Below are positions 55,966 through 56,507 of a stretch of DNA of 64,000 bases, piece after piece (positions within the stretch are counted from its first letter, which is position 1; every line of letters begins with the position of its first letter). The stretch lies in NCBI RefSeq assembly GCF_014230355.1, contig NZ_JACLAX010000003.1, positions 62,001 through 126,000 of the forward strand. The letters run 5' to 3'. Under the pieces are notes generated by a model. That model was given only the letters and a program-made list of their open reading frames with translations. It was not told the DNA's origin and searched no databases. Position numbers and translations under genes: made by a program. This DNA is from Novosphingobium piscinae. GTDB taxonomy: Bacteria; Pseudomonadota; Alphaproteobacteria; Sphingomonadales; Sphingomonadaceae.

Positions 55966-56033
55966 GCGGGGACGGCGCTGCCGACGCAGGCCGGAAGCGG
56001 CGAGTGTGACAGGGAAAAACTTGAACACAAGAC

Positions 56034-56061
56034 TTGTTGTTGCGCGCCTTGGCCATATGTT
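56034..56061 (+). promoter_or_regulatory. Candidate promoter of the extended-SD small ORF unit
   Basis: TTGTTG (56034-56039) and TATGTT (56056-56061) are 16 bp apart, in a locally AT-richer patch directly upstream of the two leader hairpins. The match is moderate. Confidence 0.35.
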
Positions 56062-56071
56062 GGGTGGCAAG

Positions 56072-56117
56072 GACGGGGTGCGATGAAATCGCGCTCCGTC
56101 CCAGCCCCGAGAGGGGC
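56072..56117 (+). ncRNA. Two stable leader hairpins before the small ORF
   Basis: Hairpin 1 has arms 56072-56084 and 56088-56100, 13 pairs with two G-U and loop GAA. Hairpin 2 is GCCCC/GGGGC with a GAGA tetraloop (56104-56117). They stand back to back, as in a structured RNA leader. Confidence 0.55.
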
Positions 56118-56137
56118 GACTTTGGCTCAACAGCGCG

Positions 56138-56151
56138 AAAGGAGGTGATCC
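56138..56151 (+). promoter_or_regulatory. Full-length 14-nt Shine-Dalgarno
   Basis: AAAGGAGGTGATCC is the exact complement of the 3' end of 16S rRNA (GGATCACCTCCTTT) over 14 nt, far longer than the usual 4-7. The GGAGG core is 7 nt from the ATG at 56153, the right distance for initiation. Confidence 0.8.
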
Positions 56152-56152
56152 G

Positions 56153-56209
56153 ATGTCTCATGGTTCAGCAGAGAGGTCGGTACAGTCCCGCGCGAGGCAT
56201 TATCGCTGA
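56153..56209 (+). CDS. 18-codon small ORF behind the 14-nt Shine-Dalgarno
   Basis: The ORF encodes MSHGSAERSVQSRARHYR and a TGA stop. The peptide is basic and polar, with no signal or membrane segment, and I recognise no family. The stop codon lies inside a perfect 8-bp inverted repeat (TTATCGCT at 56200-56207, AGCGATAA at 56220-56227). It is not rich in any one amino acid, so a classic amino-acid attenuator for ilvE is unlikely. It could be a real microprotein, a stalling or arrest peptide, or a decoy that holds ribosomes. Confidence 0.5.
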   Translation: MSHGSAERSVQSRARHYR

Positions 56210-56263
56210 GTTTCGATTAAGCGATAAAGGCTTCGTGGGCGGCACTTCCGGCCGCTGACCATG

Positions 56264-56300
56264 CGAAGGGCAGCACGCTTCGGCGTCGCTGCCCTTCTCA
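56264..56300 (+). terminator. Terminator-like hairpin after the small ORF
   Basis: AAGGGCAGCACGC and GCGTCGCTGCCCTT pair over 13 bp with one bulged C and a TTCG loop, followed by CTCATTT. With the promoter candidate at 56034 this bounds a transcript of about 230 nt. Confidence 0.6.
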
Positions 56301-56439: not shown

Positions 56440-56507
56440 TCATCCCAGCGCAGGCTGGGATCTCTCACCCCGCCGCGGACGATGCCAGCCTGGGCTGGCA
56501 TGACGAT
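56440..56507. repeat. Paired inverted hairpin element (BIME-like), site E
   Basis: The left hairpin is atcccagcgcaggctgggat and the right hairpin is atgccagcctgggctggcat, about 20 bp apart, with TC before the left and TGACGAT after the right. It lies in the gap 56301-57060, where I see no gene. A CTCAGGCTGAG palindrome (near 56395) relates to the repeat at 31283. Confidence 0.7.

What the first reader, a model, noticed from the sequence alone, without database searches (positions are those of the whole stretch)
56034..56300. Small ORF behind a perfect 14-nt anti-Shine-Dalgarno complement, inside a structured RNA unit
Seen directly: AAAGGAGGTGATCC (56138-56151) complements the whole 16S rRNA tail; two strong hairpins precede it; an 18-codon ORF starts 7 nt behind the GGAGG core; its stop codon sits in an 8-bp inverted repeat; and a 13-bp TTCG hairpin closes the unit. 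Such a long SD is far stronger than a gene needs and slows ribosome clearance in known systems. Inference: the RNA may be a ribosome-binding regulator or decoy, a leader using stalling, or encode a highly made microprotein. I cannot tell from memory whether it has been described before.
Basis: partly seen in the sequence, partly recalled or inferred. Interest (0 to 1): 0.78.

Follow-up and report, generated by a model that had tools for sequence, protein, structure and literature searches.

The report
Ribosome-gripping small mRNA of sphingomonads
A short DNA stretch found across sphingomonad bacteria combines a 15-letter match to the ribosome's mRNA-docking tail, an 18-codon reading frame and a conserved RNA helix; it likely makes a small RNA whose shape and lifetime would be set by ribosomes binding it, a variant of a little-studied small-mRNA class of other alphaproteobacteria.

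Summary
The match to the 16S tail is 15 nt (56137-56151), followed by an 18-codon ORF and a terminator-like hairpin. A covariance model found it in 193 of 213 sampled genomes of the window's family and 0 of 83 from other families of the order.

A helix pairing codons 3-6 with the stretch before the terminator-like hairpin covaries across the class. ORF length is held (15-36 codons in 185 of 185), while the sphingomonad peptide shows no sign of selection. So translation, not the peptide, is probably what is conserved.

Large genomes of another family carry the same core before a GTG-started 14-codon ORF, matching my recollection of rreB (Hahn et al. 2017; not held, title seen in a reference list). 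Rfam's Caulobacter CC2171 is a sub-threshold match. I read the element as the sphingomonad variant of this class: a ribosome-gated small mRNA. Transcription, 30S binding and cellular effect are untested.

The parts
56027..56037 (+). Palindrome ACAAGACTTGT, overlapping a -35-like TTGTTG (56034-56039)
   Evidence: CAAGnCTTG upstream of 111 of 127 distinct sphingomonad-type entries, about 0.0145 expected per segment; ACAAGNCTTGTT occurs once in the own genome. Promoter role inferred; the simple sigma-70 scan found nothing.
56056..56061 (+). -10-like TATGTT; in relatives the place where GANTC-ACATT stands
   Evidence: GANTC within 34 nt behind the palindrome in 87 of 111, at offset 16 in 69. The window itself lacks GANTC. 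Inference.
56068..56297 (+). Predicted transcript, about 230 nt; 5' end inferred from the -10-like site, 3' end from the terminator-like hairpin
   Evidence: Inference; no RNA data.
56071..56101 (+). 5' leader hairpin 1
   Evidence: Fold; outside the BLAST-matched stretch in most relatives.
56104..56117 (+). 5' leader hairpin 2
   Evidence: Fold; a hairpin at this place in many but not all of 22 same-genus loci; not in the class-wide core.
56137..56151 (+). Extended Shine-Dalgarno sequence, 15-nt contiguous complement of the 16S 3' tail
   Evidence: GAAAGGAGGTG is present in all 60 loci fetched by the BLAST search (30) and the Rfam-model search (30), which did not demand it as a pattern; 50 of the 60 continue as ATC, 5 as GTC, 5 as AC. 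In the alignments it is invariant by construction.
56153..56209 (+). 18-codon ORF MSHGSAERSVQSRARHYR with TGA stop
   Evidence: frame-0 length 15-36 codons in 185 of 185.
56159..56169 (+). 5' arm of helix P1 (CAUGG, bulged U, UCAGC)
56200..56227 (+). Apical hairpin that holds the stop codon
   Evidence: 8-bp repeat; present in the minimum-energy fold.
56254..56263 (+). 3' arm of helix P1 (GCUGACCAUG)
56265..56297 (+). Terminator-like hairpin with TTCG loop and a weak T tract
   Evidence: window entry included; the stricter scan did not list it.

Best explanation
This is a stretch whose 15-nt complement of the 16S tail, 18-codon ORF and start-adjacent helix are conserved across the sphingomonad family, and it likely encodes a ribosome-gated small mRNA: 30S capture by the long complement would compete with the helix, and the act of translating, rather than the peptide, would set the RNA's fold and lifetime. 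Shown here: the conserved core, the covarying helix P1 that begins three bases behind the start codon, the held ORF length, the lack of peptide conservation in sphingomonads, the terminator-like hairpin and the conserved promoter-like block. Inferred: that the 30S subunit binds the whole complement. Full pairing ends one base before the AUG, so it would have to open partly before the start codon can sit in the P site, which would make initiation slow. Inferred: that a ribosome which does start opens P1 and the rod behind it as far as the stop codon in the apical hairpin. Recalled from the abstract of Hahn et al. 2017 on rreB, not read here: such an RNA co-sediments with 30S, is weakly translated, and becomes more stable when its start codon is removed. 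What the RNA then does to the cell (30S decoy, base-pairing regulator) is open.
For: Unique 14-mer. Model match in 193 of 213 family genomes and 0 of 83 of other families of the order. Pattern in 70 of 385 class genomes, and in 48 of 86 Alphaproteobacteria against 0 of 213 others in a phylum draw. P1: own arms pair at -10.12 against -7.70 +/- 0.32 kcal/mol for swapped arms over 53 distinct arms, 0 of 20000 permutations; on 75 diverse RNAs 82.9% of cells pair against 70.1 +/- 1.0 shuffled, covariation 0.346 against 0.177 +/- 0.015, slid versions at most 0.098 (a 47-row subset gave 0.446). ORF length 15-36 in 185 of 185 against 69 and 100 in the other frames and 53.6 +/- 6.2 in shuffles; in 120 sphingomonad-type entries the sd is 0.6 codons against 18.7 and 11.8. 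NTG start in all 54 entries from searches that did not demand one. Peptide not conserved. ORFs of 14 and 18 codons with GTG behind the same core in other families.
Against: No RNA-seq, ribosome profiling or binding data. The complement is 15 nt, one short of the 16 nt that I recall as the published search criterion, and the Rfam score is 44.4 against a cut-off of 75. P1 is not equally good everywhere: the own arm beats all swapped ones for 5 of 53 arms and is in the best tenth for 19; the outermost pair fails in 24 of 69 cells and the number of pairs with changes on both sides is not beyond shuffles (6 against 4.7, 58 of 500). RNAalifold on the 47-row alignment did not find P1. Outside sphingomonads the ORF holds an anti-SD-like stretch (46 entries, mean z -1.53; reversed-motif control -0.19), but the sphingomonad version does not (28 entries, -0.32 against -0.28), so the switch may differ. 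The small rhizobial set leans towards peptide conservation (5 of 14 codon changes synonymous, 0.36 against 0.22; 8 pairs). In sphingomonads frame +2 has more synonymous changes than random (0.47 against 0.24), which I take as a by-product of RNA constraint, since that frame has no held length. Entries are related by descent, so the p-values overstate the evidence.
Confidence: 0.6

Rival explanations
1. A 30S decoy: the RNA's job is to tie up free 30S subunits through the 15-nt complement, like a brake on initiation, and the ORF only helps recycle it.
For: Length and conservation of the complement; only one such site in the genome.
Against: A simple decoy needs no fixed ORF length and no start-adjacent helix, yet both are conserved. 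A single gene would need a very high transcript level; not measured.
Confidence: 0.15
2. A dual-function base-pairing sRNA: the structured 3' domain regulates other mRNAs, and the long SD with the ORF controls its decay.
For: Classified as sRNA in Rfam (CC2171); conserved stretch between ORF and terminator-like hairpin within the genus.
Against: No target search was made. The interior is the least conserved part between orders.
Confidence: 0.15
3. A functional 18-residue microprotein made at high level.
For: Open frame with start codon and length held in all 185 entries; a lean towards synonymous changes in the small rhizobial set (5 of 14).
Against: Fewer synonymous changes than random in frame 0 of sphingomonads (27 of 157 codons); third codon positions are the least variable; a one-base length difference gives another peptide but nearly the same length (L049 20 codons, L050 18).
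Confidence: 0.06
4. A leader peptide or attenuator of the downstream aminotransferase-class-IV gene.
For: That gene lies downstream on the same strand in 35 loci.
Against: Terminator-like hairpin behind the unit and about 700 nt to the gene in the window; different neighbours in other lineages (UvrB, acetyl-CoA synthetase).
Confidence: 0.03

Closest known systems
rreB / rreR small mRNAs (Hahn et al. 2017, RNA Biol 14:1353, PMID 27834614; not held; title seen in the reference list of PMC7298713; content recalled from the abstract)
   Same: Extended SD directly before a very short ORF on a small RNA. Loci L251-L256 (14 codons, GTG, 17-nt run) and L259-L264 (18 codons, GTG) fit the recalled rreB and rreR and share the core with the window.
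   Different: The window has 15 nt, ATG, another peptide, another P1 sequence, a sphingomonad promoter-like block and a longer predicted leader. Sphingomonadales are not among the orders I recall from that abstract.
Rfam RF01867, CC2171 (Caulobacter sRNA)
   Same: Core, NUG start, UCUCAU and P1 position align over the whole model, 1-159. Over the class the model rings in 61 of 289 genomes, 9 over the cut-off, and among 14 named control genomes only in Caulobacter vibrioides. Rfam 15 lists one added covarying pair for this family (PMC11701678, passage); a Mesorhizobium sRNA list names it (PMC5596092, passage).
   Different: 44.4 bits against a cut-off of 75; listed as a non-coding sRNA. A ribosome-profiling paper says that two earlier predicted Caulobacter ncRNAs are translated, not named in the passages that I saw (PMC4117421).
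Anti-SD sRNAs of alphaproteobacteria (SisA-D; PMC12559287, passage seen)
   Same: Small alphaproteobacterial RNAs tied to the SD/anti-SD pairing.
   Different: Opposite sense: they carry an anti-SD motif against mRNAs; this one carries the SD against 16S rRNA.
Extended SD mRNAs of Staphylococcus aureus (PMC13009471; start of abstract and passages seen)
   Same: Extended SD pairing governs initiation.
   Different: mRNAs of another phylum; a short free-standing RNA with P1 was not mentioned in what I saw.

Membership tests
rre class (rreB/rreR), features as recalled | At least 16 nt of contiguous complement to the 16S 3' end | tested here: not met
   15 nt against a congener's 16S end. One nt short; the own 16S end was not found in the assembly.
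rre class (rreB/rreR), features as recalled | Very short ORF directly behind the extended SD | tested here: met
   18 codons; 15-36 codons in 185 of 185 entries.
rre class (rreB/rreR), features as recalled | Small free-standing transcript bound to 30S | not testable with these tools
   Terminator-like hairpin and promoter-like block only.
RF01867 CC2171 | Score at or above the gathering cut-off of 75 bits | tested here: not met
   44.4 bits, E 2.3e-8.
RF01867 CC2171 | Closing helix after the start region | tested here: met
   The same alignment columns carry P1 in the window and in Caulobacter-type RNAs.
Leader peptide / attenuator | Fixed downstream gene under control | tested here: not met
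   Neighbours differ between lineages.
Conserved microprotein | Purifying selection on the peptide | tested here: not met
   sphingomonad set of 104 (0.17 against 0.25). The rhizobial set of 14 leans the other way (0.36 against 0.22, 8 pairs); the Caulobacter-type set of 13 gave one pair.

The most novel reading that the evidence does not exclude
Alphaproteobacteria carry one class of ribosome-sensing RNA in which the reading frame is a ruler rather than a gene: the 16S-tail complement loads a 30S, the fixed number of codons carries the ribosome just far enough to strip a start-adjacent switch helix (and, outside sphingomonads, an internal near-copy of the 16S tail that can mask the SD), and the RNA thereby reports initiation capacity to the cell.
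Probability: 0.3. Interest if true: 0.8.

Novelty: new variant of a known kind. Interest (0 to 1): 0.55.

Why it matters
If right, a little-studied small-mRNA class becomes one structural family across Alphaproteobacteria, with a testable switch helix and a rule (length kept, peptide free). It would be a natural in-cell readout of 30S availability. It also suggests that Rfam's CC2171 may be translated, and gives annotators a pattern for tiny genes that are otherwise easily missed.

Tried and rejected
A conserved anti-SD stretch inside the sphingomonad ORF: not above control. RNAalifold on the 47-sequence alignment: three trivial pairs only, because the interior does not align; P1 was then tested on named columns and by arm swapping. 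A first, looser arm test over 59 arms gave the same direction (-15.32 against -14.04 +/- 0.27, 0 of 10000). Frame +1 and +2 ORFs as the real product: lengths not held. Mobile-element origin: no blastn match in the plasmid or phage collections. Literature: searches with CC2171, RF01867, rreB, rreR, extended Shine-Dalgarno and sphingomonad names showed, in listings and passages, no description of a sphingomonad member; the library lacks most subscription papers, so this is weak evidence. Passages of PMC10117765 and PMC5082802 held nothing on the RNA.

Selection of rows. Searches demanded ATG, and later scripts demanded GAAAGGAGGTG; start-codon counts therefore rest on the 54 entries and core counts on the 60 loci (the best 30 of each search). 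One search found 199 entries and kept 185 unique ones; L108 (a longer gene of an Oscillospiraceae record) and L164 (a betaproteobacterial MAG) were dropped by hand, and entries too near a locus end were skipped. One search used 175 of the 185, some with a wrong terminator pick. Alignment A1 used 47 rows picked by hand from 75 diverse ones; among the 28 left out were ordinary ones with a weak P1, so the count was repeated on all 75, which is the figure that I rely on. The P1 columns were chosen after looking at the alignment. The split of genome counts into 86 and 213 and 213 and 83 and the 14 genomes with two matches were counted by eye. Searches over more than 40 genomes used stricter filters that lose weak matches.

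Full report
What is there. The window carries GAAAGGAGGTGATCC at 56137-56151, ATG at 56153, an 18-codon ORF ending with TGA at 56207-56209 at an 8-bp inverted repeat, and a TTCG-capped hairpin at 56265-56297. Against the 16S 3' end of a congener (L211) the contiguous complement is 15 nt. The 14-mer is unique in the assembly, and its reverse complement, the 16S 3' end, was not found there. The part 56118-56299 folds at -90.0 kcal/mol, z -5.75.

Conservation. BLAST with 56020-56310 matches 36 of 61 genomes; 36 of the 37 own and same-genus genomes match and none of the 24 from other families. The conserved block begins near 56123 in most same-genus loci, so the two leader hairpins are not part of the core. 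GAAAGGAGGTG stands in all 60 loci brought by the BLAST and Rfam-model searches. Pattern AAAGGAGGTGATCCGATG: 164 of 296 genomes of the order. Covariance model R1, built on 47 RNAs: 193 of 296, all among the 213 genomes of the window's own family, 0 of 83 in other families; 14 genomes show two matches. The looser pattern GAAAGGAGGTGRTCNNRTGTC: 70 of 385 class genomes; in a draw over the phylum 48 of 86 Alphaproteobacteria and 0 of 213 others. Rfam's CC2171 model: 61 of 289 class genomes, 9 over the cut-off.

Reading frame. In 185 unique entries the frame behind the SD closes after 15-36 codons in all 185, against 69 and 100 in the two other frames and 53.6 +/- 6.2 in dinucleotide shuffles. In the 120 sphingomonad-type entries the standard deviation is 0.6 codons. 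The 54 entries from searches without a start-codon demand all have ATG (40) or GTG (14). Serine is second in 181 of 185. Yet in 77 nearest pairs of 104 sphingomonad ORFs only 27 of 157 changed codons are synonymous, 0.17 against 0.25 expected, and third codon positions vary least. The frame and its length are kept; the peptide is not. Two results cut across this: the small rhizobial set has 5 of 14 synonymous (0.36 against 0.22), and in sphingomonads frame +2 shows 0.47 against 0.24. The second frame has no held length, so I leave it as a by-product of RNA constraint.

Helix P1. In the window 56159-56163 and 56165-56169 pair with 56254-56263, with U56164 bulged. In Caulobacter-type RNAs the same columns read CAUUGUC / GACAAUG, in others UGAGAUU / AAUCUCA or GUGAG / CUCAC. 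Swapping arms between 53 distinct RNAs weakens pairing from -10.12 to -7.70 kcal/mol, never reached in 20000 permutations, though single own arms are the best of all in only 5 cases and in the best tenth in 19. On all 75 diverse RNAs 82.9% of cells pair (70.1 +/- 1.0 shuffled), 48 cells have changes on both sides (14.6 +/- 3.0), covariation is 0.346 (0.177 +/- 0.015 shuffled; at most 0.098 when slid); the count of pairs with changes on both sides, 6, is not beyond shuffles (4.7; 58 of 500). The hand-picked 47 rows gave 81.4% and 0.446. P1 begins three bases behind the start codon, where an initiating 30S would lie (inference).

Promoter and end. A palindrome CAAGnCTTG stands upstream in 111 of 127 sphingomonad-type entries, and GANTC follows within 34 nt in 87 of these, 69 at offset 16, where about 0.04 is expected per segment. 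GANTC is, from recall, the CcrM methylation site of alphaproteobacteria; the window itself lacks it. The palindrome with its flanks (ACAAGNCTTGTT) is unique in the genome. The generic promoter scan found nothing. A terminator-like hairpin was found in 180 of 185 entries, a few of them clearly the wrong hairpin.

Context. Upstream of the element in the window lie a proline-rich ORF without Pfam match and an FtsJ/S4 protein (TlyA-like); downstream lies an aminotransferase of class IV; relatives of the first ORF are upstream in 62 loci and of the last downstream in 35. Other lineages have UvrB (11 loci) or acetyl-CoA synthetase (14 loci) nearby instead; names rest on one Pfam-scanned representative each. 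No match in plasmids or phages.

Relation to known RNAs. Rfam CC2171 aligns over its full length but below its cut-off. These fit what I recall of rreB and rreR in the abstract of Hahn et al. 2017, a paper I could not read. The recalled criterion of 16 nt would just miss the 15-nt sphingomonad form, which may explain why sphingomonads were not listed. Because that criterion and the Rfam cut-off are not met, I call the window's RNA a sphingomonad variant of this kind, not a member of either named family.

Mechanism. Pairing of all 15 nt ends one base before the AUG, so the 16S-mRNA duplex would need to open partly for the start codon to reach the P site; this predicts strong 30S binding and slow initiation (inference). 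A ribosome that starts would open P1 and the rod as far as the apical hairpin that holds the stop codon (inference). Outside sphingomonads the ORF also contains a stretch like the 16S tail that can pair with the SD (46 entries, mean z -1.53, 17 at p 0.05 or less; reversed-motif control -0.19), for example CGGATCGCCTTCA in L111; in L086 an exact GGATCACCTCC lies behind the stop codon instead. In sphingomonads the in-ORF signal is absent (28 entries), so P1 would carry the switch alone. The cellular effect is unknown; decoy and base-pairing sRNA remain open.

Noticed in passing
upstream of 127 sphingomonad-type entries; window 56027-56061: Nearly gene-specific promoter-like block: palindrome CAAGnCTTG plus GANTC at the -10 place in most relatives; hints at a dedicated regulator and at methylation-dependent (GcrA/CcrM-like, recalled) control.
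   Followed up: partly
L111, L129, L139, L154, L181, L195, L196 and others, about +30 to +45 of the ORF: Near-copy of the 16S tail inside the ORF that can pair with the extended SD of the same RNA; significant outside sphingomonads only.
   Followed up: partly
G061 (L195 at C1:805104 and C1:2921849) and 13 other genomes with two model matches: Two paralogues in one genome; in G061 one has a CAUUGUC/GACAAUG P1 (Caulobacter-like) and one is of sphingomonad type.
   Followed up: no
20 genomes of the window's family, such as several of genus g27 and g34: No model match although near-complete: possible loss or divergence beyond the model.
   Followed up: no
ORF codons in sphingomonads: Changes leave frame +2 with an excess of synonymous codons (0.47 against 0.24), not explained beyond RNA constraint.
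   Followed up: partly
L164 (record titled Betaproteobacteria MAG): The core with a 35-codon ORF in a record not labelled alphaproteobacterial; possible misbinned contig.
   Followed up: no
window 56442-56500: Two weak Rfam CRISPR-DR28 calls (E 2.2 and 3.9, below the cut-off) at CCCAGC/GCTGGG repeats; probably an ordinary intergenic palindromic repeat.
   Followed up: no
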